Below are positions 18,642 through 63,419 of a stretch of 64,000 nt of DNA, piece by piece. The notes beneath the pieces are model-generated. The model did no database searches, had not been told where the DNA came from, and saw only the letters and a program-made list of their open reading frames with translations. The stretch is taken from contig NZ_JABEZU010000002.1 in assembly GCF_013149785.1 (NCBI RefSeq), forward strand, positions 620,001-684,000, given 5' to 3'. This DNA is from Isoptericola halotolerans. Lineage in GTDB: Bacteria > Actinomycetota > Actinomycetes > Actinomycetales > Cellulomonadaceae. A program made the translations under genes and the position numbers. Numbering within the stretch: the stretch's first letter is position 1; every line of letters starts with the position of its first letter.

Positions 18642-19844
18642 TCACGGCACCCACGCGCACACGAGGTGCCCCGCACCGGTGGCGTGCAGCGGACCGGCGT
18701 CGTGCGGCACGAAGGCCGAGGACCCCTGGGGCAGGACGGCCGGTTCCGCGGCACTCTCCGCGCACAGGGTGACACGACCCCCCAGGCAGAGCACGACGCG
18801 CGGCCCGACGGCCGGCAGCACGACCTCCTGGCCCGGGCCCACGTCCGCGGTCGTCAGGGCGAACTCCGTGACCGGCGCGCGGTACGTGTGCACCGTGCCG
18901 TCCGGCCCGGACACCGTGCGCTCCGGCGCCACGGGTGGGCGCGGGACGAACGACGCGCACTCGAGCAGCGCGTCGCTGTCGACCCGCTTGGTCGTCAACC
19001 CGGCGCGCAGGACGTTGTCGCTCGACGCCATCACCTCGACCGCCAGGCCCGACAGGTAGGCGTGCACCTCGCCCGGCGGGAGGAACAGCCCCTCGCCCGG
19101 GTCGAGCGTGACCCGGTTGAGCAGCAACGAGGCGAGGGCACCGGGGTCGCCCGGGTGCTGGGCGGCCAGCGCCAGGACGGTCGCGTCGGCCCGGGCCGAC
19201 GGCGAGGAGGCCAACCGGTCCCGGACGGCGTCGACGGTGGCGGCCACCTCCTCGGCGCACCGGTCCGTCCCGCGTGCCGCCAGGAGGTGCGTGAAGGCTG
19301 CCCGGATGCCCCGCGGCGAGCGGTCGGCCTCCAGCGCGCCGCGGACCCGCTGGATCAACGGGCCGTCGAGACCGGCGAGCAGCTCCAGCACGGTCCGCGC
19401 CGTGCGGAACCCGGCCAGCCCTTCGAACTCGGTCAGGGCGACGACCATCTCGGGCTTGTGCTGGTCGTCGTGGAAGGACCGGTCGGGCGAGCCCGGTGCG
19501 ACGCCGAGCCGGTTCTCCCGGTTGAAGCCGGCCCGGGCGAGGTGCGGCCGGGGGTGCACCTGCAGGGAGAGCGCGCGGTCGGCGGCCAGGACCTTGAGGA
19601 GGAACGGGAGCCGGGGGCCGAAGAGGTCCGAGACCCGTCGGCCGAGCATCGCCTCCGGCGCCGACCGGACGAGCTCGTGCAGCGGGACGCCGTCGGCGCG
19701 GCTCGGGGCGCTCGGGTGCGCACCCAGCCACAGCTCGGCGACGGGGCCGCCGTCCGCGGGCGATCCCAGCAGCGCCGGGATGCGCGTCGGGGAGCCCCAG
19801 TCGTAGCGCCGCAACGGGTTCTCCAGAGGGTGCAACGCGGTCAC
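18642..19844 (-). CDS. manA: Mannose-6-phosphate isomerase, class I (copy 1)
   Basis: This 400-residue zinc enzyme interconverts fructose-6-P and mannose-6-P. Metal ligands are visible in LQVHPRPHLARAGF (Gln, His), DQHKPEMVVALT (Glu) and the later LPPGEVHAYL (His). The N terminus LENPLRRYDWGS is typical. The start GTG 19844 was set by alignment to copy 2 and to the family; the open frame continues upstream without family similarity. It provides mannose-6-P for ManB (GDP-mannose route) and perhaps for nonulosonate synthesis. It is about half identical by eye to the second ManA at 37842. Confidence 0.93.
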   Translation of the reverse strand: MTALHPLENPLRRYDWGSPTRIPALLGSPADGGPVAELWLGAHPSAPSRADGVPLHELVRSAPEAMLGRRVSDLFGPRLPFLLKVLAADRALSLQVHPRPHLARAGFNRENRLGVAPGSPDRSFHDDQHKPEMVVALTEFEGLAGFRTARTVLELLAGLDGPLIQRVRGALEADRSPRGIRAAFTHLLAARGTDRCAEEVAATVDAVRDRLASSPSARADATVLALAAQHPGDPGALASLLLNRVTLDPGEGLFLPPGEVHAYLSGLAVEVMASSDNVLRAGLTTKRVDSDALLECASFVPRPPVAPERTVSGPDGTVHTYRAPVTEFALTTADVGPGQEVVLPAVGPRVVLCLGGRVTLCAESAAEPAVLPQGSSAFVPHDAGPLHATGAGHLVCAWVP

Positions 19845-19892
19845 GGAGCCAGCCAACCACAGCAGCGCGGCGCGTCCAGGCAGGCGTCTCGT

Positions 19893-19914
19893 GTTCACCC
19901 GCAGGTCGCCTCCC
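19893..19914 (+). promoter_or_regulatory. PHO-box-like 11-bp direct repeat (acyltransferase-manB)
   Basis: Two adjacent 11-mers, GTTCACCCGCA and GGTCGCCTCCC, match the Streptomyces PhoP repeat unit G(G/T)TCAYYYR(G/C)G at 10 and 8 of 11 positions. The second unit overlaps the -35 region of the TAGCGT -10 at 19931, the usual position for PhoP activation. Confidence 0.5.
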
Positions 19915-19930
19915 GGCCACCGGCCGGGGC

Positions 19931-19936
19931 TAGCGT
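19931..19936 (+). promoter_or_regulatory. Probable -10 of the acyltransferase operon
   Basis: TAGCGT lies about 16 bp after the PHO-like box and would give a leader of about 40 nt carrying the GAGGAG ribosome-binding site (19973-19978). Confidence 0.4.
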
Positions 19937-19983
19937 TCGTCGGACGTGCCGAGACGCTCGGCTTCCGGACGTGAGGAGTGGTC

Positions 19984-22047
19984 GTGGCGGAGTCCGCGCG
20001 CGCCGTCGACCGGCCCCTCACCGGCGGGCCGCGGCACATCGTCGAGCTGCACGGGCTGCGCGGCCTGGCCCTGCTGCTCGTCGTCGTCTTCCACCTGTTC
20101 GGCGACGGCCGGGTCTCCGGCGGGGTCGACGTCTTCCTGATGGTCTCAGGGTTCCTCGTGACGACCGCGCTGGTGCGGCGGGCGGGCAGCGGGCGGCTGT
20201 CCCTGCGCGAGCGCTACGGCAGCTACGCCACGCGGCTCGTCCCTCCTGCGCTGGTGGTGCTGGTCTTCGTGGCGATCGCGGCCCGGACGGTGCTCCCTGC
20301 GGAGCAGGCGCTGCAGACCGGCCGAGAGATCGTGGCCTCGGCGCTGTACGTCGAGAACTGGGAGCTCATCGTCTCGCAGCTCACCTACGACGCGGCGGGA
20401 GCGGCGACGAGCCCCGTCCAGCACTTCTGGTCGCTGGCGGTCCAGGGCCAGTTCTTCCTCGTCTGGCCGGCCGTCGTCGTCGCGCTCGCGATGCTCGCCC
20501 GTCGACGCTCGCTGCGCCTCGAGCTCCTCGTGGCCCTCGTGGCGGGGGCAGGCACCGTGGCCTCGTTCCTGTGGGCTGCCCAGATGGTCGACAGAGACCA
20601 GCAGGTGGCCTACTTCCACTCGGCCGCCAGGTTCTGGGAGCTCGGTGCCGGTGCCCTGCTGGCGGTCGCCCTGCCGTACCTCGCGCTGCGCGGACCGGTG
20701 CGGGACGCGCTGGCGTGGGTCGGGCTGGTGATGGTGGTCGCCTCGGGCCTCCTCGTCGACGGCGCGACGCAGTACCCGGGCCCGTGGGCCCTCGTGCCCG
20801 TCGGTGGGGCCGTCCTCGTCGTCGTCGGCTCCGGCAGCGCGACCGGCCGCGGGCCGTCCATGGTGCTCGGGGCAGCGCCACTGAGGGGTGTCGCCCGGAT
20901 CTCCTACTCGTTGTACCTGTGGCACTGGCCGTTGCTGATCACCTACCTCGCGCTGCGTCAGCGGGACGCCGTCGGCTGGCGGGGGGCCGTGCTGGTGCTC
21001 GTCGCCTCGGTGCTGCTCGCCTGGGCGACGCACGGTCTCGTGGAGGAGCGTGGCAGAGCGCTGCTGGTCCGTCGCGGGACCGGGCGCGGGGGACTGACGG
21101 CAGCGGTCGCCACGTCCGTCCTGTGCCTGGTGGTCGGTGGAGCCGTGGCCGTGGTGGAGTCCCGCCAGAGCGCACACCTCGACCTGCTCGCCGAGCCGTC
21201 CCGCGACCACCCCGGCGCAGCGGTGCTGGCAGCGGGCTACACCGGGCCCGGCACGTGGACGGCGGCGCCGCGTCCGCAGCCGGAGATCGCGAGCCGGGAC
21301 GCGGCGCAGAGCAACGTCGACGGGTGCGCCGTGGACTCCGGTCCCGCAGAGGCCGAGGTCCGGGTGTGCCCGGTCGTCGAGCCGGCCCGCGCGACCCGCA
21401 CCGTGGTCCTGCTCGGCGCCTCGCACGTCGTCCAGTACGAGCCCGCCTTCGAGATGCTCGGTGCGGCGCACGGCTGGCGCGTGCTGACGGTCTCCAAGTC
21501 GGGGTGCCACTTCCAGCGGCCCGACGACGGCACGGAGGCCAGCTGTGCGACGTGGAACCGGGGTGCGCTCGACCGCGTCGTCGCGCTCGAACCCGACCTG
21601 GTGGTCGTCCTCGGGGCGGTCACGCGACGCGACGGCCCGGACCGGGTCCTGCCAGGGCACGTGGAGGCATGGCGAGACCTGGAGGCCGCCGGTCTGCGGG
21701 TGGCCACGCTGCGCGACAACCCGCGGTTCGAACGGTCCCCGACGATGTGCCTGCGGGACGACGGCCCGGACGCATCCTGCGGGAGGAGCCGCGACGAGGT
21801 GCTCGCTCCGCGCAACCCGGCGGAGCACGCCGACGGTGTCCCGGCGACGGTGGCCCACGTCGACCTGACGCGCTGGATCTGCGACGGCGCGCAGTGCCCT
21901 GCGGTCGTCGGCAACGTGCTCGTCTACCGGGACAAGGGCCATCTCTCGGCGACGTACGTCCGGTCGCTCGCGCCCTACCTCGACGAGCAGCTGCGCCGCG
22001 AGGTGCCGTGGCTCCACGCCGCCGGTGAGCAGGCCGTCGCACCGTAG
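19984..22047 (+). CDS. OafA/YrhL-type membrane acyltransferase with SGNH domain
   Basis: This 687-residue protein has an acyltransferase-3 membrane domain (about residues 12-370). It opens with HIVELHGLRGLALLLVVVFH and has the GGVDVFLMVSGFL motif and YSLYLWHWPL, with about ten or eleven TMs. An extracytoplasmic SGNH-hydrolase-like domain follows, with a LLGASHVVQYEP block and the late DKGHLSATYVRSL segment carrying the Asp/His pair. Such proteins transfer acetyl groups to surface polysaccharides. GTG 19984 is favoured over GTG 19978 because GAGGAG lies 5 nt upstream. Its TAG stop forms part of the next gene's -10. Confidence 0.9.
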   Translation: MAESARAVDRPLTGGPRHIVELHGLRGLALLLVVVFHLFGDGRVSGGVDVFLMVSGFLVTTALVRRAGSGRLSLRERYGSYATRLVPPALVVLVFVAIAARTVLPAEQALQTGREIVASALYVENWELIVSQLTYDAAGAATSPVQHFWSLAVQGQFFLVWPAVVVALAMLARRRSLRLELLVALVAGAGTVASFLWAAQMVDRDQQVAYFHSAARFWELGAGALLAVALPYLALRGPVRDALAWVGLVMVVASGLLVDGATQYPGPWALVPVGGAVLVVVGSGSATGRGPSMVLGAAPLRGVARISYSLYLWHWPLLITYLALRQRDAVGWRGAVLVLVASVLLAWATHGLVEERGRALLVRRGTGRGGLTAAVATSVLCLVVGGAVAVVESRQSAHLDLLAEPSRDHPGAAVLAAGYTGPGTWTAAPRPQPEIASRDAAQSNVDGCAVDSGPAEAEVRVCPVVEPARATRTVVLLGASHVVQYEPAFEMLGAAHGWRVLTVSKSGCHFQRPDDGTEASCATWNRGALDRVVALEPDLVVVLGAVTRRDGPDRVLPGHVEAWRDLEAAGLRVATLRDNPRFERSPTMCLRDDGPDASCGRSRDEVLAPRNPAEHADGVPATVAHVDLTRWICDGAQCPAVVGNVLVYRDKGHLSATYVRSLAPYLDEQLRREVPWLHAAGEQAVAP

Positions 22048-23791: not shown

Positions 23792-23829
23792 TCCTCGGGT
23801 CAGCAGGTGTCTGAGGGAAGTTGAGATCG

Positions 23830-25203
23830 ATGAGCCGGACGGTGTCGGTGGCCAAGCAGAGATTGCGCGGCGCCGCGATGGAGCGGTTGCGAGGAGGGCC
23901 ACGGACCCGGCGTCAGAACGTCGAGCTCTCGGTCCTCGTCGCCGAGCTGGGTGAGCTCGCCTCGGTCCTGTCGGCGAGCGCCGCGTGGCGGGACGTCCAG
24001 CTCGTCCGCGCCGTCGTCGACCTCCAGGCCGCGCTGGCGGCCGACCGGACCGACGAGGACGTGGCCGTGGACCTCGCCCTCGGCAGGCGGTCCTGGCACG
24101 CACGCCCCTCGCAGGCGTGGGAGGCCCTGCTGCTGGTCGCCCGTCGCGCACGAGCCGGCGAGCCCGACCTGGCGGCCCGTGCGGCCGCGCTCCTGCTGGC
24201 AGCCCGCCCCGACGACCCCGACGCCACGGCGGTCTCCCAGGAGTCGCTGCGGGCGCTGCAGGCCCGTGGGGACCAGTCGTGGCGCAAGCGCGCCGCGCGG
24301 CGGTCTGCCGACGACGCCGTCGCCGCGACGCTCGCGGCGCTCACCGTGCCGGGCGCGCCCGGTACGGGATGGTTCGGTGTCGAGGAGTCGCTGCGTGAGG
24401 GGACCGACCTCGCGGAGGCCGCCGCCCACGAGCTGCGGCAGGCCTACCTGGGCGACCCGTCGGCCGCCCGCCCCTACCTGCCGGCGCTGCGGGCCACGGT
24501 CGCCCGGGGCCTGGCGAACGACCTCCCGCTCGCCCGCACGCGGGAGATCTTGGCCGCCACGGCCGAGGAGTTCTCCGCCAAGGCGCGACCGGAGCTGGTC
24601 GATATCGACACGGTGAACATCTCCGGGCTGCGCGACGAGCTCGCCGGCAGGTCGGTCTGTCTCGTCGCGAACTCTGCCGTCCTGCTCGAGCACGAGCTCG
24701 GTGCGCAGATCGACACCTATGACGTCGTGGTGCGATTCAACTCCTTCGCGATCGACCCGGTCCGCACCGGTGAGAAGACGGACGTGCACGCGACGATCCA
24801 CCTGCACGACTTCAACTGGGACGTCCCCGTCGACGTCCGGCTCGTGTTCGGAGGGGCCCCGGCAGCGTGGGCCGAGAACGTGCGCGGCTTCGTGCACCCG
24901 GGCGCGCAGCGGCTGCTCGGTGACGAGTCGCTGCGATGGCCCCGGCGCTCCCTGCTCGGACCGGCGCTGCGCGAGCGCTGCACGGTCCCCACGACCGGGT
25001 TCAACATGCTGCTGCTGCTCGACTACCTCGACGTCAGCACCCGGATCGACCTCTTCGGCTTCGACTTCCACTCCGGGGCCCCCTACCGCCGTGACGACGC
25101 CATGCACCTCCCGATCGCGGAGGCCCACTCCTACGAGGTGGAGCGTGAGTGGGTCGCCGAGCGAACCGTCGCGACCGCCCCGGGAAGGATCTCCCTGCGA
25201 TGA
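23830..25203 (+). CDS. GT29 sialyltransferase-like glycosyltransferase
   Basis: This 457-residue protein has about 270 helical N-terminal residues, Ala/Arg-rich and possibly repeat-like. The C-terminal half carries the eukaryotic-type sialylmotifs. The L-motif (about 275-310) is SVCLVANSAVLLEHELG followed by IDTYDVVVRFN and a GEKTD. The S-motif (about 386-411) is PTTGFNMLLLLDYLD followed by IDLFGFDF. A late HSYEVEREW resembles the VS-motif His/Glu pair. GT29 enzymes use CMP-sialic acid or CMP-KDN as donor. The start ATG 23830 has a GAGGGAAG site 9 nt upstream. The stop overlaps the next start (ATGA). The donor could come from the CMP-nonulosonate ORF at 41895. Confidence 0.75.
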   Translation: MSRTVSVAKQRLRGAAMERLRGGPRTRRQNVELSVLVAELGELASVLSASAAWRDVQLVRAVVDLQAALAADRTDEDVAVDLALGRRSWHARPSQAWEALLLVARRARAGEPDLAARAAALLLAARPDDPDATAVSQESLRALQARGDQSWRKRAARRSADDAVAATLAALTVPGAPGTGWFGVEESLREGTDLAEAAAHELRQAYLGDPSAARPYLPALRATVARGLANDLPLARTREILAATAEEFSAKARPELVDIDTVNISGLRDELAGRSVCLVANSAVLLEHELGAQIDTYDVVVRFNSFAIDPVRTGEKTDVHATIHLHDFNWDVPVDVRLVFGGAPAAWAENVRGFVHPGAQRLLGDESLRWPRRSLLGPALRERCTVPTTGFNMLLLLDYLDVSTRIDLFGFDFHSGAPYRRDDAMHLPIAEAHSYEVEREWVAERTVATAPGRISLR

Positions 25204-37841: not shown

Positions 37842-39074
37842 TCAGGGGACCCAGGCGCACACGAGGTGGGCGGCGCCGTCCGCGGTCACCGGCCCGGCGG
37901 CATCGGGCACCAGGCAGGACTCGCCACGGCGCAGCTCGGTCTCGCCCGACTCCGTGAGCAGCCGCACCGCACCGTCCAGCACGAGCACCACGCGCGGGCC
38001 GTCGGGGGCGAGCGCCACCGGTTCGGCGGGGTGGACGTCGGCGGTCATGAGCGCGAACTCGCTCACCGGCGCCCGGTAGCTCGTCACCAGGCTCTCGGTG
38101 CCCGCCACGACGGTGTCGGGGCGGACCGGCGGACGGGGGGAGAACGCCGAGCACTCGACCAGCGCGTCCGCGTCGACGTGCTTGGTCGTCAGGCCGGCCC
38201 GGAGCACGTTGTCCGAGGCGGCCATGACCTCGACGCCGAGCCCGGACAGGTAGGCGTGCACCTCGCCCGCCGGGACGAACATCGCCTCGCCCGGCTCGAG
38301 GGAGACCCTGTTGAGCAGCAAGGAGGTCACGGCACCCGGGTCGCCGGGATGCTCGTCGGCGAGCTGCAGCACGGTCGCGTCGGCGCGGTCCGACGGCGAA
38401 CCGGCCGCCGCGCGCGCCCGGACCGACGCGACGGTCGTCGCGACGTCCTGCGCACACCCGGCGGTGCCGCGTGCCGCGACGAGCAGCTCCATGGCGGCGC
38501 GCAGCCCGGCGGAGGACCGGGTGCCGTCCAGCGCACCGCGGATCCGGCCGACGAGCTCACCGTCGAGACCGTCGAGCAGCTCCAGGACGGCGCGCGGGCT
38601 GCGGAACCCCGCCAGTCCCTCGAACGGGGTGAGGGCGACGAGCATCTCGGGCTTGTGCTCGGTGTCGTGGAACGACCGGTGCGGTGCGCCCGGCGCCGTC
38701 CCTGCGCGGTTCTCCCGGTGGTAGCCGGCCCGGGCCTGGTGGGGGCGGGGGTGCACCTGCAGCGACAGCGCCCGCCGTGCCGCCAGGACCTTGAGGAGGT
38801 ACGGCAGCCGCGGCCCGAACCGGTCCGCCACGCGGCGCCCCAGCACCTCGACCGGCGCGGTGGCGATCAGGTCGGCGAGCGTCGAGCCGGCGCTCAGGCG
38901 CGACGGTGCCGAGGGGTGGGCACCGAGCCACAGCTCGGCGGCGGGCCGCCCGTCGCGCGGCAGGCCGAGCAGGTCCTGGATGTGGTCGTGCGACCCCCAG
39001 TCGTAAGGCTGGACGGTGTTCTCGAGCCGGTGCGCGGAGGCGAGAAAGACCGGTGCTGTTGGTGAGGTGTTCAT
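37842..39074 (-). CDS. manA: Mannose-6-phosphate isomerase, class I (copy 2)
   Basis: This 410-residue paralogue of the gene at 18642 has the metal-site motifs LQVHPRPHQARAGY, TEHKPEMLVALTPF and VPAGEVHAYL intact. The DNA of the two copies is clearly diverged. ATG 39074 is chosen because copy 1 starts a similar distance before the shared LENxxxxYDWGS; GTG 39113 is an alternative. It is the nearest central-metabolism gene to the NeuB-type synthase (2.8 kb), so it may supply mannose-6-P for KDN-type synthesis. The stop lies 3 nt past hairpin copy 2. Confidence 0.9.
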   Translation of the reverse strand: MNTSPTAPVFLASAHRLENTVQPYDWGSHDHIQDLLGLPRDGRPAAELWLGAHPSAPSRLSAGSTLADLIATAPVEVLGRRVADRFGPRLPYLLKVLAARRALSLQVHPRPHQARAGYHRENRAGTAPGAPHRSFHDTEHKPEMLVALTPFEGLAGFRSPRAVLELLDGLDGELVGRIRGALDGTRSSAGLRAAMELLVAARGTAGCAQDVATTVASVRARAAAGSPSDRADATVLQLADEHPGDPGAVTSLLLNRVSLEPGEAMFVPAGEVHAYLSGLGVEVMAASDNVLRAGLTTKHVDADALVECSAFSPRPPVRPDTVVAGTESLVTSYRAPVSEFALMTADVHPAEPVALAPDGPRVVLVLDGAVRLLTESGETELRRGESCLVPDAAGPVTADGAAHLVCAWVP

Positions 39075-39090
39075 CAGCAATTCATCGACT
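39069..39090 (+). promoter_or_regulatory. Weak PHO-box-like tandem 11-mers at the start of manA copy 2
   Basis: GTTCATCAGCA and ATTCATCGACT are adjacent and match the PHO unit at 9 and 8 of 11 positions. They overlap the proposed start codon of manA copy 2 and precede the divergent sulfotransferase at 39154, so function is doubtful. Confidence 0.25.
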
Positions 39091-39153
39091 TTCGTGAGGC
39101 GGTTGTGATTCACTCGGCGCTCGATCTACGCGCCTCGAAAGACCGGAGCCCCC

Positions 39154-41810: not shown

Positions 41811-41843
41811 GTTCACCGACGGGTCACGGAGTGTTCGTCGACA
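41811..41843 (+). promoter_or_regulatory. PHO-box-like triple 11-bp repeat upstream of the nonulosonate gene
   Basis: GTTCACCGACG, GGTCACGGAGT and GTTCGTCGACA are contiguous and in 11-bp register; the first matches the Streptomyces PHO unit at 10 of 11 positions, the second at 8. The array ends 38 bp before the TAGTGT -10. Confidence 0.5.
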
Positions 41844-41894: not shown

Positions 41895-43985
41895 ATGAAC
41901 GAATCCGTGCTCGTCGTCGTCCCCGCTCGTGGCGGGTCGGCCGGCGTGCCGCTGAAGAACCTGCAGCGGGTCGGGGGCAGCTCCCTGGTGGCCCGCGCGG
42001 TGCGTTCGGCGGCCGCCGCGCCGGCAGTGACCGACGTCGTCGTCTCCACCGACCACGCCGAGATCGCCCGCGAGGGGGCGCTGCACGGCGCCCGGGTGGT
42101 CGAGCGTCCCGCGGACCTGGCGGGAGCGACCGCCAGCTCGGAGTCCGCCGTGCTGCACGTCCTCGACGCGCTCGTGGCCGAGGGTGCCGAAGAACCGGCG
42201 GTCACCGTGCTGCTGCAGGCGACGAGCCCGTTCGTCGACCCCTCCGACCTGGACACCGCGGTGCGCCAGGTGCTGGCCGGGCGGCACGACGTCGTCGTCG
42301 CCGTCGCGCCGACGCACGACTTCCAGTGGCGGATGGACGACGACGGACCGGTGCCGGTCGGGCACACCGCCGACCACCGCCCGCGGCGGCAGGACCGCGC
42401 CCCGCACTTCCGAGAGACCGGCGCGTTCTACGTGATGCGTACGGCGGGCCTGCGCGAGCACGGGACCCGGTTCTTCGGGTCGGTCGGCCTGCAGGCCGTC
42501 GCGCCGCAGTGGGCCGTGGAGATCGACGACCCCCGCGACCTGTGGCTCGCGCGGACCCTCCTCGACCAGCCCGCCGACCAACCGTCCGACGCCGAGCCCG
42601 GCCCGGTGGAGCGGATGGACGTGGACGCCCTCGTCACGGACTTCGACGGCGTGCACACCGACGACGGCGTGTACGTCTCCCAGGACGGCGTCGAGCAGGT
42701 GCGGGTCCACCGCGGCGACGGCCTGGGCGTCGGCCACCTGCGCGCGGCCGGCATCCCGCTGCTCATCCTGTCCAAGGAGACCAACCCGGTCGTGACGGCC
42801 CGGGCTCGCAAGCTCGGCGTCGACGTCCTGCAGGGCATCGACGACAAGGAGACGGCGCTGCGCGACTGGTGCGCCGCGAACCGGCTCGACCCCGACCGGG
42901 TCGCCTACGTCGGCAACGACGTCAACGACCTCCCCGCCCTGCGCGTCGTCGGCTGGCCCGTGGCCGTCGCCGACGCCCACCCCGACGTGCTCGCCGCCGC
43001 GCGGGTCGTCACCGAAGCGCGAGGCGGCCACGGCGCCGTCCGCGAGATCTGCGACCGCATCACCACCCATCGGAAGGACCCCGTCATGACCGCCACCTCC
43101 ACCGCCCCCGTGGCCCAGCCCGTCCAGATCGGCGAGCACGCCGTGGGCGTCGGCGAGCCCGTGTACGTGATCGGGGAGATCGGCATCAACCACAACGGTG
43201 ACGTCGAGATCGCCAAGCAGCTCATCGACGTCGCGGTGGCCGCGGGCTGCCAGGCCGTGAAGTTCCAGAAGCGCACCCCGGAGATCTCCACCCCGAAGGA
43301 CCAGCGGGACAAGATCCGTCAGACGCCGTGGGGCGAGATGACGTACCTGGAGTACAAGTACAAGGTCGAGTTCGAGCACGAGCAGTACTCGGAGATCGAC
43401 CAGTACGCCAAGGCGCAGGGCATCCAGTGGTTCGCCTCGCCGTGGGACGTGCCCTCGGTCGGGTTCCTCGAGGAGTTCGGGGTGCCCACCCACAAGATCG
43501 CCTCGGCCTCGGTGACCGACCACGAGCTGCTGCGGGCGCTCGCCGACACCGGCAAGCCGCTCATCCTGTCGACCGGGATGTCCACCCTGGAGCAGATCGA
43601 CCAGGCCGTGGAGATCCTCGGCAGCGACGACCTGGTGATCCTGCACTCCACCTCGACGTACCCGCTGCCTCCCGAGGAGGCCAACCTGCGCACGATCAAC
43701 ACGCTCCAGGAGCGGTACGGCGTGCCGGTCGGCTACTCCGGCCACGAGACCGGTCTGCAGATCTCCGTGGCCGCCGTCGCCCTCGGTGCGGTCGCCGTCG
43801 AGCGGCACATCACCCTCGACCGCGCCATGTGGGGCTCGGACCACGCCGCGTCGCTGGAGCCCAAGGGCCTGACCAACCTCGTGCGTGACATCCGCATCCT
43901 CCAGGACGCCCTGGGCGACGGCGAGAAGAAGGTCATGCCGGGCGAGCTCGCGCCGATGTCGCGCCTGCGCCGCGTCGACGCCTGA
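41895..43985 (+). CDS. CMP-nonulosonate synthetase / KdsC-like HAD phosphatase / NeuB synthase fusion
   Basis: One open frame of 696 codons holds three enzymes. Residues 1-235 are a NeuA-type cytidylyltransferase (VVPARGGSAGVPLKNLQ, LLQATSPFVDPSDLD, the RETGAFYVM strand). Residues about 240-395 are a KdsC-like HAD phosphatase with LVTDFDGVHTDDGV, LSKETN and YVGNDVNDLPAL. Residues 398-696 are a NeuB-type synthase (GEIGINHNGDVEIAKQLI, CQAVKFQKR, STGMSTLEQ, GYSGHETGLQISVAAVALGA, ERHITLDRAMWGSDHAASLE) that condenses PEP with a hexose(amine) or its 6-phosphate. There is no stop between parts, but ATG 43086 has GGAAGGA 7 nt upstream, so NeuB may also be made alone. NeuB lacks the C-terminal SAF/antifreeze domain. 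No NeuC epimerase is present, so KDN from mannose-6-P is a simple interpretation. Confidence 0.85.
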   Translation: MNESVLVVVPARGGSAGVPLKNLQRVGGSSLVARAVRSAAAAPAVTDVVVSTDHAEIAREGALHGARVVERPADLAGATASSESAVLHVLDALVAEGAEEPAVTVLLQATSPFVDPSDLDTAVRQVLAGRHDVVVAVAPTHDFQWRMDDDGPVPVGHTADHRPRRQDRAPHFRETGAFYVMRTAGLREHGTRFFGSVGLQAVAPQWAVEIDDPRDLWLARTLLDQPADQPSDAEPGPVERMDVDALVTDFDGVHTDDGVYVSQDGVEQVRVHRGDGLGVGHLRAAGIPLLILSKETNPVVTARARKLGVDVLQGIDDKETALRDWCAANRLDPDRVAYVGNDVNDLPALRVVGWPVAVADAHPDVLAAARVVTEARGGHGAVREICDRITTHRKDPVMTATSTAPVAQPVQIGEHAVGVGEPVYVIGEIGINHNGDVEIAKQLIDVAVAAGCQAVKFQKRTPEISTPKDQRDKIRQTPWGEMTYLEYKYKVEFEHEQYSEIDQYAKAQGIQWFASPWDVPSVGFLEEFGVPTHKIASASVTDHELLRALADTGKPLILSTGMSTLEQIDQAVEILGSDDLVILHSTSTYPLPPEEANLRTINTLQERYGVPVGYSGHETGLQISVAAVALGAVAVERHITLDRAMWGSDHAASLEPKGLTNLVRDIRILQDALGDGEKKVMPGELAPMSRLRRVDA
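43072..43088 (+). promoter_or_regulatory. Internal ribosome-binding site and in-frame ATG of NeuB
   Basis: GGAAGGA (43072-43078) stands 7 nt before ATG 43086, in frame with the fusion ORF. It could give a separate 299-residue NeuB. Confidence 0.55.
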
Positions 43986-44043: not shown

Positions 44044-45015
44044 ATGACCGCCTCCCGACCTCAGGTGTCCGTCGTCGTCCCCGCCCGGGACGCCGGCGGG
44101 CACCTGCCCGACGCCCTGGGCAGCCTGCAGCGGCAGGGCCTGGACCTGTGCGACCTCGAGGTGGTGGTGGTCGACGACGGCTCCACCGACGACACCCTCG
44201 CCGTGCTGGAGGAGGCCTCGTCCCGGCTGCCCGTCCTGCGGTGGGTGCACCACCGCACGCCGTTGGGGGTCTCCGCGGCCCGCAACCGTGGTGTCCGTGA
44301 GTCGCGCGGTCGCTGGGTGACGTTCCTGGACCCGGACGACTGGTTCTTCCCCGGTCATCTGGCCGCGATGGTGGACGCCGCCGCACGGTACGAGGTGGAC
44401 TTCCTGGTGTGCGACCAGGTGCAGGCGTACGGCAACGACCGTCGCCGGGTCCGGGCGCCCGAGCCGCGCCGGCACGTGCCGCTCGACCCGCGCAGCGGCA
44501 TCATGCCGACCTCTCGTTCCACGATGGTCAACTACGTGCAGGTCTCGTCGCGGTTCCTGTCGCGGCGGGTGGTCGACGACGGTCTGGTGGTCTTCGACGA
44601 GGACCTGCCGACGGCGGAGGACCGCGAGTGGGCGTGGCGCCTGCTGCTCGGGACCCGCCGCTACGCCGTCGTGGACGCGCCGGGGTACGTGTACCGGCGG
44701 GCGGTGTCCGGGTCGCTGACCGACGTCGGTGACGCCCGCCAGCTCGGCTTCCTCGAGGCCTATGACGCGGTCCTGGACCGGCTGCGCCGCGACGACCTGC
44801 CGCAGTACGAGCCCAAGGTGCTGCGTGACGTGCTCGCCGTGCTCCACCATCACGTGGCGCGCCGCACGGTCTACCCGGACGACGTCTGGCGGACGATGAC
44901 GGCGCGTGCCCGCGAGGTGGTCGGGCGCTTCGACAAGCAGGTGGTCGCCCAGCAGGTCGCGGCGCTCGGTCCGGAGCGGGTCCGCGCGGTCCGCAAGCAG
45001 GGGGTGTCCCTGTGA
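44044..45015 (+). CDS. GT2 glycosyltransferase
   Basis: This 323-residue GT-A enzyme has VSVVVPARDAGGHLPDALGS, VVVVDDGSTDDTLAV, SAARNRGVRESRG, the metal-binding FLDPDDWFFPGHL and TAEDREWAWRLLLG. It most resembles capsule/teichoic-acid-type GT2 proteins. AAGGA lies 9 nt upstream of ATG 44044. Its stop overlaps the start of the polysialyltransferase-family gene (GTGA), placing both in the nonulosonate operon. The sugar donor is not predictable. Confidence 0.88.
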   Translation: MTASRPQVSVVVPARDAGGHLPDALGSLQRQGLDLCDLEVVVVDDGSTDDTLAVLEEASSRLPVLRWVHHRTPLGVSAARNRGVRESRGRWVTFLDPDDWFFPGHLAAMVDAAARYEVDFLVCDQVQAYGNDRRRVRAPEPRRHVPLDPRSGIMPTSRSTMVNYVQVSSRFLSRRVVDDGLVVFDEDLPTAEDREWAWRLLLGTRRYAVVDAPGYVYRRAVSGSLTDVGDARQLGFLEAYDAVLDRLRRDDLPQYEPKVLRDVLAVLHHHVARRTVYPDDVWRTMTARAREVVGRFDKQVVAQQVAALGPERVRAVRKQGVSL

Positions 45016-46481
45016 GCGCGGTGACCACCCAGATCGTCACGGCGTCGACCCTGTTCGGCGCGGCCACGGTCGCGGCGGCCTGGGACGCGGGGGCTCTGCC
45101 CCGGCGCGACCGCACGGTGCTCGTGGTGCAGCACAACGTGCCGGCACCCGAGTGCTCCGACGACTTCACGGCGAGCCCGGCCTTCGCGGCGCTCGGCGAC
45201 CGGTTCGACGCCGTCGTCGCCTGGAACGACGTCGTCACCCCGCACCACCCCAAGGAGTGGAAGCCGCGACCTGCGGACGTGCCCCTGTGGGAGCGGCTGC
45301 TGCGGCAGCGGTGGGACCTGGGCGACGGTCCGCTGGAGATCGTGGGGGAGTCGGTGGCCACACCGCCGACCGGTGCCCTGGTCGCGATCTTCGCGTCGGC
45401 CGCCGTGAGCGTGTATGCGGACGGCCTGATGGTCTACGGCCCGACCCGCTTCGACCTGCGCCACGAGGTCGGCGGACGGGTCGAGCGGCTGCTCCACCTG
45501 GACCTGCTGCCCGGGGTGCGCCCCACGCTGCTCGCGGAGTGGGACGTTCCCGGAGCGGTGGTCCCGGCCGAGGCGTTCCGCAAGGTCGTGGGTGCGCTGA
45601 CCGAGCAGGCCGTCGCCACCGACGTGGCGCGCGCGGAGCGGGAGGGGCCCACGAACGGCCACGCCGCCGTCGTCCCGCGCACGCTGGCCGACCGGCTGCC
45701 GGAGGAGGGCACGTACGCCCTGCTGCTGGGTCAGTACATGGCGGCGATCGGGTTGCTGACCGAGGCCGAGGAGGCCGAGTTGCACCGCGGCATGGTGGAC
45801 GCGGCTGCTGAGCGGGGGTTCACGCGGGTGCTGCTCAAGCCGCACCCGTCGGCGCCCCGGCAGGGCACCGCGGAGCTGGTCGAGCACGCCCGCACCGTGG
45901 GGGTGGACCTCGAGGTCGCTCCGGCCGCGGTGCTGGCCGAGTCGTTGTACGGCGAGTCGGCCCCTGGCCTGGTGGTGTCGTGCTTCTCGACGGCGCTGGC
46001 CACGGCCCGGGCGTTGTACGGCGTGCCGACGCTCAACGTGGGGACCGGGATGCTGCTGGAGCGGCTGGAGCCGTACCCCAACTCGAACCGGGTGCCCGCC
46101 GTCGTCGTGGACGCCCTCGGACGGCAGGACGGGCGGTGGCAGGACCCGGCCGCGATGCAGCGCCTGGTCCGGGCGGTGTCGTACTGCCAGCAGCCGCGGC
46201 TGCTGGCGCGCTTCCGTGACGAGTCCGCGGATCTGCTGCGGGAGCTCGACGACGCGACGCTGCGGCAGTGGTTCCGCCGCAAGCGGCTGACCGCGCTCGC
46301 GCTGCCCGGTGGGATGCCGGTGCCGCGCTGGCGCTCGGCGCGGGTGATCGCCTCGGTCGACGCCCTGGACCGTCGCCTGCTCGGGGGTCGGCTGCGGCGC
46401 CTCGTGCGACGGCGGTACGCCGGTGCGGGGGACGACCTGCAGGCGGCGGTCGGTGCGGCGAAGGGGCAGCTGGATGGCTGA
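45012..46481 (+). CDS. Alpha-2,8-polysialyltransferase-family glycosyltransferase
   Basis: This 489-residue GT-B protein resembles bacterial polysialyltransferases (PF07388). The N-terminal STLFGAATVAAAWDAGAL and VLVVQHN turn start the acceptor half. The donor half has VLLKPHPSAPRQG (the HP motif that contacts CMP-sugar) and LVVSCFSTALATARALYG (the Ser-rich motif). Members polymerise sialic acid from CMP-Neu5Ac; here the donor is probably the CMP-nonulosonate made by the upstream gene. The C-terminal 60 residues are Arg-rich and may bind the membrane. It starts at GTG 45012 and overlaps the next gene by 8 nt. Confidence 0.78.
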   Translation: MSAVTTQIVTASTLFGAATVAAAWDAGALPRRDRTVLVVQHNVPAPECSDDFTASPAFAALGDRFDAVVAWNDVVTPHHPKEWKPRPADVPLWERLLRQRWDLGDGPLEIVGESVATPPTGALVAIFASAAVSVYADGLMVYGPTRFDLRHEVGGRVERLLHLDLLPGVRPTLLAEWDVPGAVVPAEAFRKVVGALTEQAVATDVARAEREGPTNGHAAVVPRTLADRLPEEGTYALLLGQYMAAIGLLTEAEEAELHRGMVDAAAERGFTRVLLKPHPSAPRQGTAELVEHARTVGVDLEVAPAAVLAESLYGESAPGLVVSCFSTALATARALYGVPTLNVGTGMLLERLEPYPNSNRVPAVVVDALGRQDGRWQDPAAMQRLVRAVSYCQQPRLLARFRDESADLLRELDDATLRQWFRRKRLTALALPGGMPVPRWRSARVIASVDALDRRLLGGRLRRLVRRRYAGAGDDLQAAVGAAKGQLDG

Positions 46482-47556
46482 GCCGCTGGACGCCGGCGCG
46501 CTGCGGCTGGTGGGCGACCTGCCGGTCGACTGCGGGGTGACGGTCGTCGCGTGCGTGCGCGACGAGGAGGCCTACCTGGCCGCGGCCGTGCGGTCGGTGC
46601 TGGCGCAGGACCACGACGGCGACCTGCGGCTGGTGCTGGCGGTGGGGCCGTCCCACGACGCGACGGCGGCGATCGCCGAGCGGCTCGCCGAGGACGAGCG
46701 GGTGACCGTGGTGGACAACCCGACCGGGTCCCGGTCGATCGGTCTGAACCTGGCCATCGAGCACGGCGCGCGGGACCAGGCGTCGGCCGAGCACGCGGTG
46801 GTGGTGCGCGTCGACGGTCACACGGAGCTCCCGCCGGACTACGTGCGGCGCTGTGTGGAGCTGTTGCGGACCACGGGCGCCGTGGGCGTGGGCGGGATGA
46901 TGACGCCGGTGGGCCACGGGACCGTGCAGGAGGCGGCGGCCCGGGCCATGAGCCACCCGGCGGGCATCGGAGCCGTGCAGTTCCACACGGGTGGTCGTGC
47001 GGGGGAGGCGGAGACCGTCTACCTGGGGGCGTTCCGCCGCGCGGCCGTGCAGGCCGTGGGGGGCTACGACCCGACGCTGTTCCGCGCGGAGGACTGGGAC
47101 CTGTGCCTGCGGCTGCGACGAGCAGGTGGTCTGCTGTGGTTCGACCCGTCGCTGGTGGTGGAGTACCGACCGCGGCGGACGTTGCGGGCGGTGGCCAAGC
47201 AGTTCTGGCGGACGGGGATGTGGCGCCGCGAGGTGGTGCGGCGCGACCCGTCGACGGCGGGTCTGCGGTACCTGGCGCCGCCGCTGCTGGTGCTGGCGCT
47301 GGGGCTGTCGGTGCTGCTGGTGGTGTGCGGTGCGGCGGTGGGCTCGTCGTTCGTGCTCGTGGCGGGGCTGGCCGTGCCGGTGGGGTACGTGGTGGGAGTC
47401 CTGGGCGCGGCCGTCCATGCGGCGTCGCGGCGTCCGGCGCTGCGTGGGCAGGCGGCGGTGGTGCTGCCGGTGGTCCTGGTGGTGATGCACGTGTGCTGGG
47501 GATGCGGGTTCGTGCGCGGGCTGACGGCGAGGGCCGCGGCGGACCATCGCGCCTGA
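46474..47556 (+). CDS. ExoA-like membrane GT2 glycosyltransferase
   Basis: This 360-residue protein has a GT-A domain (about 20-245): GVTVVACVRDEEAYLAAAV, NPTGSRSIGLNLAI, VVRVDGHTELPPDYV and FRAEDWDLCLRLRRAGG. Three or four C-terminal TM helices follow (from LLVLALGLSVLLVVCG), as in succinoglycan ExoA. It would add a sugar at the cytoplasmic membrane face. ATG 46474 is inside the end of the previous gene (8-nt overlap). It is the last gene of the nonulosonate operon, 11 nt before hairpin copy 3. Confidence 0.88.
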   Translation: MAEPLDAGALRLVGDLPVDCGVTVVACVRDEEAYLAAAVRSVLAQDHDGDLRLVLAVGPSHDATAAIAERLAEDERVTVVDNPTGSRSIGLNLAIEHGARDQASAEHAVVVRVDGHTELPPDYVRRCVELLRTTGAVGVGGMMTPVGHGTVQEAAARAMSHPAGIGAVQFHTGGRAGEAETVYLGAFRRAAVQAVGGYDPTLFRAEDWDLCLRLRRAGGLLWFDPSLVVEYRPRRTLRAVAKQFWRTGMWRREVVRRDPSTAGLRYLAPPLLVLALGLSVLLVVCGAAVGSSFVLVAGLAVPVGYVVGVLGAAVHAASRRPALRGQAAVVLPVVLVVMHVCWGCGFVRGLTARAAADHRA

Positions 47557-47646: not shown

Positions 47647-48849
47647 TCAGCGGGTCAGGCGGGCGGAGAGCGCCACGGGCAGCGCGGACCGGGCCACCGA
47701 CCACAGGTGCCGTGGCCGGGACCAGGGCACGACGGCGTCGCGCGGGGCGAGCGTCCCGGCCCGGGAGCTCTCGGCGAGCTCGCGGACCGCTCCGGCGAGC
47801 TCGTCGCCGGTGTGCAGGTAGCCGTCCTCGCACCAGGCCCGGTCCGGTGTCGGCCCGCCGGCGCGCAGCGTGGCGGCGACCTCGTCGAGGCGGCGCAGGC
47901 AGCCTGACCCGGTGTAGGCCTCGTTGAGCTGTTCCGGCCCCACCCCGAAGTCGGTGAGGAACACGGTGGGCAGCCCCCGGGCCAGCGACTCCAGCGCGGC
48001 GGTGGAGCTGACGGTGAGCAGCGCGGTCCCCGGGGTGAGGTGGTCGCCCATGGGCCCGACGGCGAAGCCCACCGTGTCGGCGGACCTGCCGAGCCGACGG
48101 TGCTCCGTGGCCCACAGGGTGTCGAGCGGGTACGGCTCGTTGTGCGTCTGGCGTTCTCCGGCGCGTGCCCGCAGCTTGACGGTCACCTCGAGACCGTCGT
48201 CGGCGAGCCGGGCCAGACCGTCGAGCAGCGCGACCCTGTCCTCGCGGGTCGCGGGCACCTTCGCCTGGGCGGCGAGCACCACCCGGTGCGGGACGCCCTG
48301 CGGCGGGGTGCCCGTTGCACGGGTGCCCGCCGGCGGGTCGAGGAACGGCAGCCGGGACAGCACGATCCGTGGGTCGGCGTCGTGCCGGGCGAACGCGTCG
48401 CGGTAGGGGGCGGCCTCTCGCCGCCCGTGCACCACGAAGGCGTCGGTCCAGCGTCGCCAGCCCGTCCCGCGATCGGTCGCGGGCAGCGCCATGCCGGGCA
48501 GCCCGGTGACCAGGGCCGGCCGGTGCCCGTGCCGGGTGGCGCGCAGCACCCGGTGGGCGACGAGCTCGGCGACGGGGCCGGTGGCGGCGACCAGCACCAC
48601 GTCGGGCAGGTGGGTGCGCACGTACCGGGTGAGCGCTCCTGGCGTGAGCACGGACGGTGGGTGCAGGCCGGTGCCGGCGACGGCGGCTCGTGCCTGCTCG
48701 GCCGTGGGGGCCAGCGGTGAGCGGAGGACGACGACGGCGGGCTCGACGACGGGCTCGCCGTCGTGATCCCGCAGCCGGGCGAGGCTCCATGCCGCCCACT
48801 TGAGGTAGGAGTCGGCGTCGGCGACCGCGAGGACGCGCACGCGACTCAT
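47647..48849 (-). CDS. Putative GT-B glycosyltransferase (DUF6716-like)
   Basis: This 400-residue protein begins VRVLAVADADSYLKWAAWSL and has the mid-region LVAATGPVAELVAHRVLRA. In the donor half are LEVTVKLRARAGERQTHNE and ALLTVSSTAALESLARGLP, the kind of Ser-Thr loop that holds the nucleotide sugar in polysialyltransferase/Kdo-transferase-like GT-B enzymes. I believe it belongs to the DUF6716 putative glycosyltransferase family, but did not verify this. It overlaps the upstream GT gene by 4 nt (ATGA). The donor may be a CMP-nonulosonate. Confidence 0.7.
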   Translation of the reverse strand: MSRVRVLAVADADSYLKWAAWSLARLRDHDGEPVVEPAVVVLRSPLAPTAEQARAAVAGTGLHPPSVLTPGALTRYVRTHLPDVVLVAATGPVAELVAHRVLRATRHGHRPALVTGLPGMALPATDRGTGWRRWTDAFVVHGRREAAPYRDAFARHDADPRIVLSRLPFLDPPAGTRATGTPPQGVPHRVVLAAQAKVPATREDRVALLDGLARLADDGLEVTVKLRARAGERQTHNEPYPLDTLWATEHRRLGRSADTVGFAVGPMGDHLTPGTALLTVSSTAALESLARGLPTVFLTDFGVGPEQLNEAYTGSGCLRRLDEVAATLRAGGPTPDRAWCEDGYLHTGDELAGAVRELAESSRAGTLAPRDAVVPWSRPRHLWSVARSALPVALSARLTR

Positions 48850-49874
48850 GCGACGGAGCGAGAACCGTGCCGGCCGGCGGTGCTGCGAGGTCCGGCGGCG
48901 CGCGCGAGGTGCGCGGCGAGGCCGAGGTGGTCGCGCAGCGCGGGCGTGGCCCGGGTGGTCCACCACGCGTCCGGCACGTCCTGCGGCAGCACGGCGACCC
49001 CGCGGGGCGTGAGGAGCCGGGTGAGGGTGACGGCAGAGGTGGACGGCAGCGACACGACCCGCTGGTCGGGACGGAGACCCCGCAGCCGCAGCTCGACCGG
49101 GGCGCCGGGGTCGTCCACCCGCACCCCGGGCAGCTGCTCGAACAGGGCGGTCACCAGCGTGTCGTGGCGGCGGTGCGGGATGTAGCGCACGGGGCCGTCG
49201 GCGGCGAGGCCGGTCAACCAGGCGGCGTACTGGTCGGCGTGGACGAGCCGGTCGGCGACGAGACCGGAACCGACCACGACGGTCGGCTCGTCGACGTCGG
49301 ACGAGGCGTCGTCGGCGGGCCGGGAGGCCAGCCAGCCGAAGGCGTGGCCGACGACGTCGACCCCGAGAGCGGTCAGCGCACCGGTGAGCTCGTCGTCGAG
49401 CGGGAGCATGGTGCACAGGGTGAGGCGACCGGCCCGCGCCAGGCGCCGCAACCGGCGCGTGGTGAGCATGCCGAGGGTGTGGCGCAGCGGCCCGGCCGGG
49501 GCGGTGAGACGGATCATCGGCGCGGCGTCGACGAGGCGCCGCGCGACGTCGAGGGTGGCCAGGCCGTCGTCGACGACCACGAGCCGCCCTACGGTGCGGC
49601 TGCGGGCCAGCGCGGTCTGGAACACGCCCGAGAAGGGGTCGCCGACCAGGTGCACGGGGGCGTCGTCCAGGGTGCGGCTCGTGGGCCCGACGGTGACGTC
49701 GAGGCCGTCGGGCAGCCCGAGGTCGCGGACGGCGCCGACGGCGGTGGCGAGCGTCGGGACGTCCGAGCGGGCCACCACCCGGGTGCGGTCGCCGGGCGGG
49801 GTGCGCAGGTGTCCGTCGGCGAAGGCCTCGACGGCGCACAGCAGCTGCAGCGGGGACTCGACCAGGGCGCTCAC
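48846..49874 (-). CDS. GT52/polysialyltransferase-like glycosyltransferase
   Basis: This 342-residue protein starts at GTG 49874 with ALVESPLQLLCAVEAF, the opening shared by many bacterial sialyltransferase-like GT-B proteins. Matching later elements are LVVVDDGLATLDVAR, VRYIPHRRHDTLVTA (an H-x-R form of the HP motif) and VVSLPSTSAVTLTRLL (donor Ser/Thr loop). It has no membrane segment. It is translationally coupled to the DUF6716-like gene. A role in adding or extending a nonulosonic acid chain is suggested but not proven. Confidence 0.65.
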   Translation of the reverse strand: MSALVESPLQLLCAVEAFADGHLRTPPGDRTRVVARSDVPTLATAVGAVRDLGLPDGLDVTVGPTSRTLDDAPVHLVGDPFSGVFQTALARSRTVGRLVVVDDGLATLDVARRLVDAAPMIRLTAPAGPLRHTLGMLTTRRLRRLARAGRLTLCTMLPLDDELTGALTALGVDVVGHAFGWLASRPADDASSDVDEPTVVVGSGLVADRLVHADQYAAWLTGLAADGPVRYIPHRRHDTLVTALFEQLPGVRVDDPGAPVELRLRGLRPDQRVVSLPSTSAVTLTRLLTPRGVAVLPQDVPDAWWTTRATPALRDHLGLAAHLARAAGPRSTAGRHGSRSVA

Positions 49875-60329: not shown

Positions 60330-60332
60330 GCC

Positions 60333-63383: not shown

Positions 63384-63419
63384 CAATCCGGTCCGGGGTC
63401 GTCGAGTACGGGGGATCGG

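What the first reader, a model, noticed from the sequence alone, without database searches (positions are those of the whole stretch)
41895..43985. One ORF joins NeuA, a KdsC-like phosphatase and NeuB: a possible single-chain CMP-nonulosonate factory
The sequence shows an uninterrupted 696-codon frame with complete cytidylyltransferase, HAD phosphatase and NeuB-type motifs. In the usual bacterial pathways these are two or three genes; NeuA-HAD fusions are known (for example the vertebrate CMAS layout), but I do not know a described NeuA-HAD-NeuB protein. A GGAAGGA site 7 nt before an in-frame ATG (43086) suggests that a free NeuB may also be made, giving two products from one gene.
Basis: partly seen in the sequence, partly recalled or inferred. 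Interest (0 to 1): 0.85.

Follow-up and report, generated by a model that had tools for sequence, protein, structure and literature searches.

The report
One-gene, three-domain CMP-Kdn enzyme
An actinobacterium and its relatives carry one gene whose three joined enzyme domains should make the activated sialic-acid-like sugar Kdn for their cell wall, and the gene appears to keep a second, internal start that would also make the first enzyme of the route on its own.

Summary
One open frame (41895-43985, 696 codons) encodes NeuA, a KdsC-type HAD phosphatase and a NeuB without its SAF domain. It is no sequencing error: the fusion recurs in 13 of 18 genomes of the genus (relatives are Isoptericola) and in 69 distinct Streptosporangiaceae-type loci. 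Separate NeuA-HAD and NeuB genes appear commoner elsewhere in Actinomycetota, and the tree rejects a single origin of the fusion (AU p 8e-7). The product is most probably CMP-Kdn: this genome has no UDP-GlcNAc 2-epimerase family member and no NanE over cut-off, but two ManA-type genes, both in the window. A polysialyltransferase-family gene follows, and the window holds sulfotransferases and pyruvyl transferases, fitting the sulfated, pyruvylated Kdn polymer reported for Promicromonospora citrea. The chemistry and the S. coelicolor teichulosonic-acid cluster are known; ten searches of the held library found no description of the three-domain fusion. Nothing was assayed. New variant of a known kind.

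The parts
41895..43985 (+). Fused gene: NeuA - KdsC-type HAD phosphatase - SAF-less NeuB, 696 aa (frame open from 41772; the nearest relatives' matches begin at query residue 1)
41895..42566 (+). CMP-nonulosonate cytidylyltransferase (NeuA) domain, residues 1-224
   Evidence: nearest solved structure 9t4z, titled PpNeuA CMP-Kdn synthetase; S15, K21, N22, Q108, R165, Q166, E209, D211 the same in 112 of 112 loci, R12 in 111 (one gap)
42618..43073 (+). KdsC-type HAD phosphatase domain, residues 242-393
   Evidence: D249, D251, S293, K318, D342, D345 in 84 of 84 fused loci; closest solved structure 3mmz, of Streptomyces avermitilis
43074..43112 (+). Linker between HAD and NeuB, residues 394-406; pLDDT under 50 at 392-405
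43072..43078 (+). Internal Shine-Dalgarno GGAAGGA
43086..43088 (+). Internal start codon ATG (M398) of the predicted free NeuB, 299 aa
43113..43985 (+). NeuB (PEP-condensing synthase) domain without the C-terminal SAF domain, residues 407-696
41811..41843 (+). Three 11-nt direct repeats resembling a PHO box, 84 nt before the start (post hoc; consensus recalled)
44044..45015 (+). Family 2 glycosyltransferase, next gene downstream
45012..46481 (+). Alpha-2,8-polysialyltransferase family protein (PF07388)
46474..47556 (+). Family 2 glycosyltransferase
47647..48798 (-). DUF6716 putative glycosyltransferase, conserved neighbour (start not settled)
48846..49874 (-). Conserved neighbour without Pfam or NCBIfam match
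37842..39113 (-). Mannose-6-phosphate isomerase ManA (source of Man-6-P)
18642..20039 (-). Second ManA-type isomerase
23821..25203 (+). GT29 sialyltransferase-like protein (PF00777, 25.3 bits against cut-off 23, 43 residues matched)

Best explanation
The gene encodes a three-domain enzyme for the whole route from mannose-6-phosphate to CMP-Kdn. The C-terminal NeuB domain condenses Man-6-P with PEP to Kdn-9-phosphate, the middle HAD domain removes the phosphate, and the N-terminal NeuA domain activates Kdn with CTP. CMP-Kdn then feeds a Kdn-containing cell-wall glycopolymer (teichulosonic acid) built by the neighbouring transferases. The fusion arose by loss of the stop between an older NeuA-HAD gene and the NeuB gene behind it. 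In the Promicromonosporaceae the old NeuB ribosome site and start were kept inside the reading frame, so the gene most likely makes both the 696-residue chain and a free NeuB of 299 residues. Shown here: architecture, conservation, more than one origin, conservation of the internal start, gene context. Inferred: the three activities, the sugar, the two products, the polymer, the route by stop loss.
For: Domains and catalytic columns. Fusion in 84 of 112 distinct loci (chosen for similarity to the query, so not a frequency). Internal start in 15 of 15 Promicromonosporaceae fusions against 1.12 expected, and 13 of 15 with at least 5 nt of Shine-Dalgarno against 0.18 expected. In 13 of these genes AGGA is 100% and the start codon 95% pairwise identical, against 56% for the rest of the 30 nt upstream. 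The encoded peptide and even the codon phase of the site vary while the site stays, and the same site stands before the separate NeuB of Promicromonospora. Kdn: the own genome has no PF02350 member and no NanE over cut-off, but two ManA-type genes, both in the window; the nearest NeuA structure is a CMP-Kdn synthetase; the Promicromonospora citrea wall polymer contains 7,9-pyruvylated Kdn and sulfated Glc (PMC6801904 passage); the window has sulfotransferases, pyruvyl transferases, a GT29-like and a PF07388 protein. Streptomyces coelicolor, with a Gal/Kdn wall polymer and the cluster SCO4873-SCO4882, is the published counterpart (passages).
Against: No NCBIfam equivalog cut-off is met by any of the three domains. 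10 of 13 fused genomes of the genus have a PF02350 member or NanE over cut-off, so ManNAc routes are open there. Related genomes are not independent tests of the internal start. Position 16 of NeuA, a Lys in the meningococcal and mouse enzymes, is Ala here. The GT29 match is short and weak and the exporter permease match is under its cut-off. No assay, no proteomics. The predicted model has low overall confidence (pTM 0.41), so nothing is said on channelling or domain packing.
Confidence: 0.68

Rival explanations
1. Same fused enzyme, but the sugar is Neu5Ac (through ManNAc-6-P) or a diacetylated nonulosonate rather than Kdn.
For: NeuB scores higher on NeuB_NnaB than on PseI; the closest NeuB structure is titled N-acetylneuraminic acid synthetase, from Leptospira; PF02350 members occur in 11 of 18 genomes of the genus and NanE over cut-off in 6 of 18.
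Against: The own genome, 100% complete, has neither, nor have 2 further fused genomes, G012 and G013; chemistry in the same family shows Kdn; a phosphatase domain fits a phosphorylated substrate; the SAF domain, whose Arg is recalled to contact the N-acetyl group of ManNAc in N. meningitidis NeuB, is missing.
Confidence: 0.15
2. Only the long chain is made; the internal Shine-Dalgarno and ATG are leftovers of the former separate NeuB gene.
For: The site is homologous in place to the start of separate NeuB genes; nearly all Streptosporangiaceae-type fusions lack it and still persist.
Against: In 15 of 15 Promicromonosporaceae fusions the site is kept while the linker ranges from 51 to 201 nt and the flanks in 13 of them are only 48-62% identical; ATG to GTG in one lineage keeps a start codon; peptide and codon phase change around the site.
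Confidence: 0.25
3. The open frame is a sequencing or assembly error joining two genes.
For: None found; in-frame stops do separate the genes in near relatives such as Promicromonospora.
Against: 13 of 18 genomes of the genus and 69 distinct Streptosporangiaceae-type loci are fused.
Confidence: 0.01
4. The HAD domain is only a structural oligomerisation module, as in vertebrate CMAS, and the phosphatase step is done elsewhere.
For: Vertebrate CMP-sialic acid synthetase has a C-domain of unsettled function (start of the abstract of PMC8636478; that it is HAD-like is recalled).
Against: The canonical HAD residues (recalled motif) are the same in 84 of 84 fused and in 27 or 28 of 28 separate sequences.
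Confidence: 0.08

Closest known systems
Streptomyces coelicolor teichulosonic-acid genes SCO4873-SCO4882
   Same: Cluster for a Kdn-containing wall polymer, phosphate-regulated (passages of PMC7831098, PMC13011467, PMC2267785); Planobispora rosea genes matched to SCO4877-SCO4882 include a sialic acid synthase (passage of PMC8269224). Group f37 g63, with genomes of 5.8-11 Mb and taken to be Streptomyces, mostly has a NeuA-HAD match beside a NeuB match.
   Different: In the f37 loci fetched (L126, L138, L139) the two are separate genes; here they are one reading frame. SCO4881/4882 themselves could not be aligned.
Bacteroides thetaiotaomicron CMP-Kdn pathway and Prymnesium parvum Kdn-9-P synthetase / CMP-Kdn synthetase
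   Same: The same chemistry: Man-6-P + PEP, phosphatase, CMP transfer (passages of PMC6200933); the nearest NeuA structure is PpNeuA.
   Different: Separate proteins as described in those passages; no phosphatase homologue was found in P. parvum.
Vertebrate CMAS (NeuA plus C domain)
   Same: NeuA followed by a second domain, HAD-like as recalled.
   Different: No NeuB domain, and its second domain is not known as an active Kdn-9-P phosphatase (recalled).
Leptospira interrogans NeuB2 with fused C-terminal phosphatase domain
   Same: A NeuB fused to a phosphatase, taken as a sign of the phosphorylated route (abstract and passages of PMC3438082; passages of PMC4758666); a Leptospira NeuB structure is the nearest to this NeuB.
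   Different: The phosphatase lies C-terminal and is described as homologous to endonucleases; neuA2 is a separate gene. PMC4758666 also mentions an N-terminal transferase domain without details.
Promicromonospora (same family)
   Same: Nearest separate relatives with the same NeuB ribosome site; P. citrea wall holds 7,9-pyruvylated Kdn and sulfated Glc (passage of PMC6801904).
   Different: NeuA-HAD and NeuB are separated by an in-frame stop in 6 of 6 named Promicromonospora loci.

Membership tests
CMP-nonulosonate synthetase (NeuA) | Cytidylyltransferase fold with the N-terminal motif, Lys21 and the two metal-binding acids (residue roles recalled) | tested here: met
   PF02348 over cut-off; aligned to 1eyr and 9t4z; K21, N22, Q108, E209, D211 in 112 of 112. 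Position 16, Lys in the meningococcal and mouse enzymes, is Ala
CMP-nonulosonate synthetase (NeuA) | Activity on Kdn with CTP | not testable with these tools
   no assay
KdsC / Kdn-9-phosphate phosphatase (HAD) | HAD motifs I-IV (recalled) | tested here: met
   D249, D251, S293, K318, G340, D342 and D345 in 84 of 84 fused
KdsC / Kdn-9-phosphate phosphatase (HAD) | NCBIfam equivalog cut-off (NF058599 180 bits; NF007019 208 bits) | tested here: not met
   96.3 and 118.5 bits: like these enzymes, not a member of either named equivalog
NeuB-type synthase | NeuB barrel with conserved catalytic residues (roles recalled) | tested here: met
   PF03102 281 bits, cut-off 22.1; E428, N432, H433, K456, Q458, K534, Y589, H617, E636, H638, D649 in 112 of 112; Foldseek to 6ncs, 8h2c, 1xuu
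NeuB-type synthase | C-terminal SAF (antifreeze-like) domain of canonical NeuB | tested here: not met
   no SAF match at E 0.001; only 286-305 residues from query position 409 to the stop in 112 of 112 loci
NeuB-type synthase | NCBIfam NeuB_NnaB equivalog cut-off 399.65 bits | tested here: not met
   271.9 bits
Actinobacterial teichulosonic-acid (Kdn) locus | NeuA-HAD and NeuB beside glycosyltransferases of the polymer | tested here: met
   in the window; genes like the downstream GT2 and PF07388 within the flanks of 64 of 65 Streptosporangiaceae-type, 5 of 9 Isoptericola-type and 2 of 6 Promicromonospora loci
Actinobacterial teichulosonic-acid (Kdn) locus | Kdn in the wall polymer of this organism | not testable with these tools
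   chemistry seen in print only for relatives
Gene with internal in-frame start (two products) | Conserved ribosome site and start codon inside the frame | tested here: met
   15 of 15 Promicromonosporaceae fusions; for the Streptosporangiaceae type 4 of 69 at 4 nt or more and 0 of 69 at 5 nt or more
Gene with internal in-frame start (two products) | Both proteins present in cells | not testable with these tools
   no proteomics

The most novel reading that the evidence does not exclude
Actinobacteria have at least twice welded the three steps of CMP-Kdn synthesis into one chain. In the Isoptericola lineage selection has kept a second ribosome site and start inside the frame, so that a single gene yields a complete three-step enzyme plus extra free NeuB, the first enzyme of the route, in a set ratio. 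The Streptosporangiaceae went on to an obligate fusion. The repeated difference at NeuA position 16 (K/Q/R when separate, A/V/T when fused) that goes with fusion in both lineages may reflect altered handling of Kdn or CTP in the joined enzyme.
Probability: 0.5. Interest if true: 0.6.

Novelty: new variant of a known kind. Interest (0 to 1): 0.48.

Why it matters
It gives a single-protein catalyst candidate for CMP-Kdn from Man-6-P, PEP and CTP. It also offers a natural experiment on why pathway enzymes fuse: the same joint arose at least twice, once with and once without a retained internal start. And it supplies candidate genes for the sulfated, pyruvylated Kdn polymers known from actinobacterial walls, whose enzymes in this family I did not find described in the ten searches made.

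Tried and rejected
Sequencing error or frameshift: rejected by conservation in relatives. Single origin of all fusions: rejected (AU p 7.9e-7); a single origin inside the Promicromonosporaceae is not rejected (p 0.0516, same call), so two fusions, or one fusion and one later split, are both open there.

Worry that the NeuA is dead because a Lys of the motif is missing: the alignment shows that the residue aligned with Lys21 of the meningococcal enzyme is kept and that it is position 16 that differs; PpNeuA, a CMP-Kdn synthetase, has Val there. Not taken as proof of activity.

PHO box: the pattern was chosen after reading the upstream sequence and the unit was recalled. The three-unit match in the window scores 19 of 21. 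A match stands at -84 in L033-L036 (scores 18-19, 0 of 100 shuffles as high), a weaker one at -111 to -99 in L037, L038 and L040 (15-16), while L039 and L041 have only other, distant best places (14 and 16). It was not found in 6 Promicromonospora loci (best 15) or in 65 Streptosporangiaceae-type loci (0 at 18 or more). Random 330-nt stretches of the window reach 18 or more in 4 of 600 draws, some of which may overlap the site. Kept as a side observation only.

Literature: ten searches listed no paper on a NeuA-HAD-NeuB fusion; the library holds open-licence papers only. Of papers I saw listings, abstracts and found passages, no whole text; Ostash et al. 2014 and Dmitrenok et al. 2017 were seen only as citations. 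The umbrella-toxin paper PMC13274773 names teichulosonic acids only in a reference. One search asked for the S. coelicolor chromosome by accession and found no record.

Structure: the model has pLDDT 73.9 and pTM 0.41 on 25 fused sequences; the 50 Foldseek matches listed confirm each domain but say nothing on packing.

Script errors: the rows 'min SD length 5' are wrong (a loop ended early); one search replaces them. One search used a broader ribosome-site pattern and is superseded.
Full report
What is there. Positions 41895-43985 hold one frame of 696 codons. Profile searches place a cytidylyltransferase at residues 7-143, a KdsC-type HAD phosphatase at 242-393 and NeuB at 443-678. Solved relatives map the same way: 9t4z and 1eyr within residues 5-224, 3mmz on 241-389, 6ncs, 8h2c and 1xuu within 407-684. 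None of the 34 distinct chains and none of the 50 Foldseek matches listed covers two of the domains. Catalytic columns are kept across 112 distinct loci, with few exceptions, all but one (a gap at R12) among separate genes. The NeuB part ends 286-305 residues after query position 409 in 112 of 112, so it lacks the SAF domain.

Is it real and how common. The window lies in a 3.97-Mb genome, 100% complete, whose nearest named relatives are Isoptericola. In its genus code 13 of 18 genomes have the unbroken fusion, one (G014) has two adjacent genes, and four have no NeuB match. Of 18 further genomes of the family, one per genus, two are fused (L019, L021), three have the parts as separate genes (G023, G029, G034), two have only a distant NeuB and eleven no NeuB match. 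The scan of public genomes kept the best 80 of 173 relatives. Of 139 loci held, 126 carried both parts and 13 were dropped for lacking one; 112 remained after removing copies: 84 fused and 28 separate. The 84 are 15 Promicromonosporaceae and 69 of Streptosporangiaceae type (65 named by genus, four unnamed of family code f35). These loci were selected for likeness to the fused query, so 84 of 112 is not a frequency. In an even draw of the class 84 of 296 genomes had a match at E 1e-30, of which 10 show one unbroken match (the own genome and nine of f35) and five a single match with one stop inside; genomes shown as two pieces were tested for fusion only where a locus was fetched. In an even draw of the phylum 16 of 296 had a match at E 1e-60 and only the own genome shows an unbroken one. 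The separate pair NeuA-HAD, NeuB thus appears to be the usual state.

Origin. On FastTree trees the fused label needs 3 changes (NeuA-HAD, and both parts together) or 4 (NeuB). On a 57-row IQ-TREE (29 of the 84 fused rows: 13 of 15 Promicromonosporaceae and 16 drawn from 69; all 28 separate rows) it needs 3, all forced by starred branches. Holding all 29 fused rows together is rejected (p-AU 7.9e-7). Holding the 13 Promicromonosporaceae fusions together is not rejected (p 0.0516). Promicromonospora, nearest to Isoptericola, has the two genes in the same frame with an in-frame TAG about 60 nt before the NeuB start in 6 of 6 named loci. Three f35 genomes (L118-L120) also have a stop between genes in one frame; 13 of 28 separate pairs are in the same frame. 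Loss of a stop codon is the simplest route, inferred.

The internal start. In the window GGAAGGA (43072-43078) lies 7 nt before ATG 43086. The six named Promicromonospora loci have CGGAAGGA with 7 nt before the NeuB ATG. Among the 15 Promicromonosporaceae fusions 15 have an in-frame ATG or GTG with at least 4 nt of Shine-Dalgarno in the linker (14 ATG), against 1.12 expected from codon shuffles; with at least 5 nt it is 13 against 0.18. Other in-frame ATG/GTG codons of these genes have such a site in 48 of 519 cases at 4 nt and 23 of 519 at 5 nt. The 69 Streptosporangiaceae-type fusions show 4 (expected 7.39) and 0 (expected 2.95), none with ATG; their other start-like codons have one in 364 and 165 of 3180. 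In the 13 Isoptericola-clade genes AGGA is 100%, AAGGA 97% and the start 95% pairwise identical, against 56% for the rest of the 30 nt upstream and 62% for the 30 nt downstream. The peptide is not the cause: L015 reads RED and not RKD, and in L019 and L021 the site lies in another codon phase.

Which sugar. The phosphatase domain implies a phosphorylated route. The own genome has no PF02350 member (UDP-GlcNAc 2-epimerase family) at E 0.001 and only a sub-threshold NanE hit (22.5 bits, cut-off 27). It has two ManA-type isomerases, both inside the window. Among the 13 fused genomes of the genus, 3 (G000, G012, G013) lack both epimerase families over cut-off and 10 have one or the other, so this argument holds for the own genome and is only permissive for most others. 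The NeuA domain's best solved relative is titled CMP-Kdn synthetase. A review passage reports for Promicromonospora citrea a polymer with 7,9-pyruvylated Kdn and glucose 3-sulfate, and a pyruvylated galactan (PMC6801904). The window carries matching gene types: GT29-like, pyruvyl transferases at 25203-27554 and 27580-28782, a GlfT2-like transferase and UDP-galactopyranose mutase, PF07388, proteins at 59472-61640 whose matches (PAPS reductase domain, GTPase) I read as sulfate activation, and sulfotransferases at 61655-62293 and 62364-63386. For S. coelicolor the Gal/Kdn polymer and the cluster SCO4873-SCO4882 are in print and phosphate-regulated (passages of PMC7831098, PMC13011467, PMC2267785). 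In Planobispora rosea a sialic acid synthase gene is listed among genes matched to SCO4877-SCO4882 (passage of PMC8269224).

Context conservation. Genes like the downstream GT2 and PF07388 lie within the fetched flanks (up to 8 kb) in 64 of 65 Streptosporangiaceae-type loci, 5 of 9 Isoptericola-type and 2 of 6 Promicromonospora loci. DUF6716 does in 61 of 65, 9 of 9 and 5 of 6. ManA lies there only in the Isoptericola-type loci (9 of 9; 0 of 71 others). Matches at this cut-off need not be orthologues.

Position 16. It is Lys in the meningococcal and mouse CMP-Neu5Ac synthetases, A, V or T in 83 of 84 fused and K, Q or R in 27 of 28 separate proteins; the exceptions are L019 (R, fused) and L136 (V, separate). 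By the filter used, 4 columns of NeuA-HAD and none of NeuB differ between fused and separate in both clades. With two or three fusion events this is a correlation without a tested meaning.

Structure. The AlphaFold2 model (25 fused sequences) has mean pLDDT 73.9 and pTM 0.41, with low-confidence joints at 226-237 and 392-405. It supports three folded units on flexible linkers and does not show how they pack.

Verdict. Known chemistry in an unusual single-gene form, conserved, with at least two origins, and with a probable retained internal start in one lineage. I found no description of it in ten searches of the held library, which lacks most subscription papers.

Noticed in passing
23821-63386: Most of the right-hand 40 kb of the window reads as one anionic wall-glycopolymer locus: GT29-like, GT8 plus pyruvyl transferase in one frame (25203-27554), a second pyruvyl transferase (27580-28782), GlfT2-like, UDP-galactopyranose mutase, PF07388, CDP-glycerol-type transferase (53791-55065), ABC transporter pair (permease match under cut-off), probable sulfate activation and sulfotransferases.
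   Followed up: partly
25203-27554: Another fused gene: a GT8 glycosyltransferase and a polysaccharide pyruvyl transferase in one frame.
   Followed up: no
36529-36596, 37767-37838, 47568-47633: Three related long hairpins (33-nt perfect arms twice, 26-nt arms of 96% once) between genes, copies 68-84% like the first; perhaps two-way terminators or a small repeat family.
   Followed up: no
41811-41843: Three 11-nt direct repeats like a PHO box 84 nt before the fused gene, at the same place in L033-L036; would fit phosphate control as in Streptomyces coelicolor (chosen post hoc).
   Followed up: partly
41940-41942 (NeuA position 16): Position 16 of NeuA is A/V/T in 83 of 84 fused and K/Q/R in 27 of 28 separate proteins, in both fused clades.
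   Followed up: partly
39154-41695: Three small genes of the locus (39154-39930 +, about 39885-40769 -, 40817-41695 -) without Pfam match over cut-off; the first has a sub-threshold sulfotransferase hit, and they are found in only 4-5 of 9 Isoptericola-type loci.
   Followed up: no
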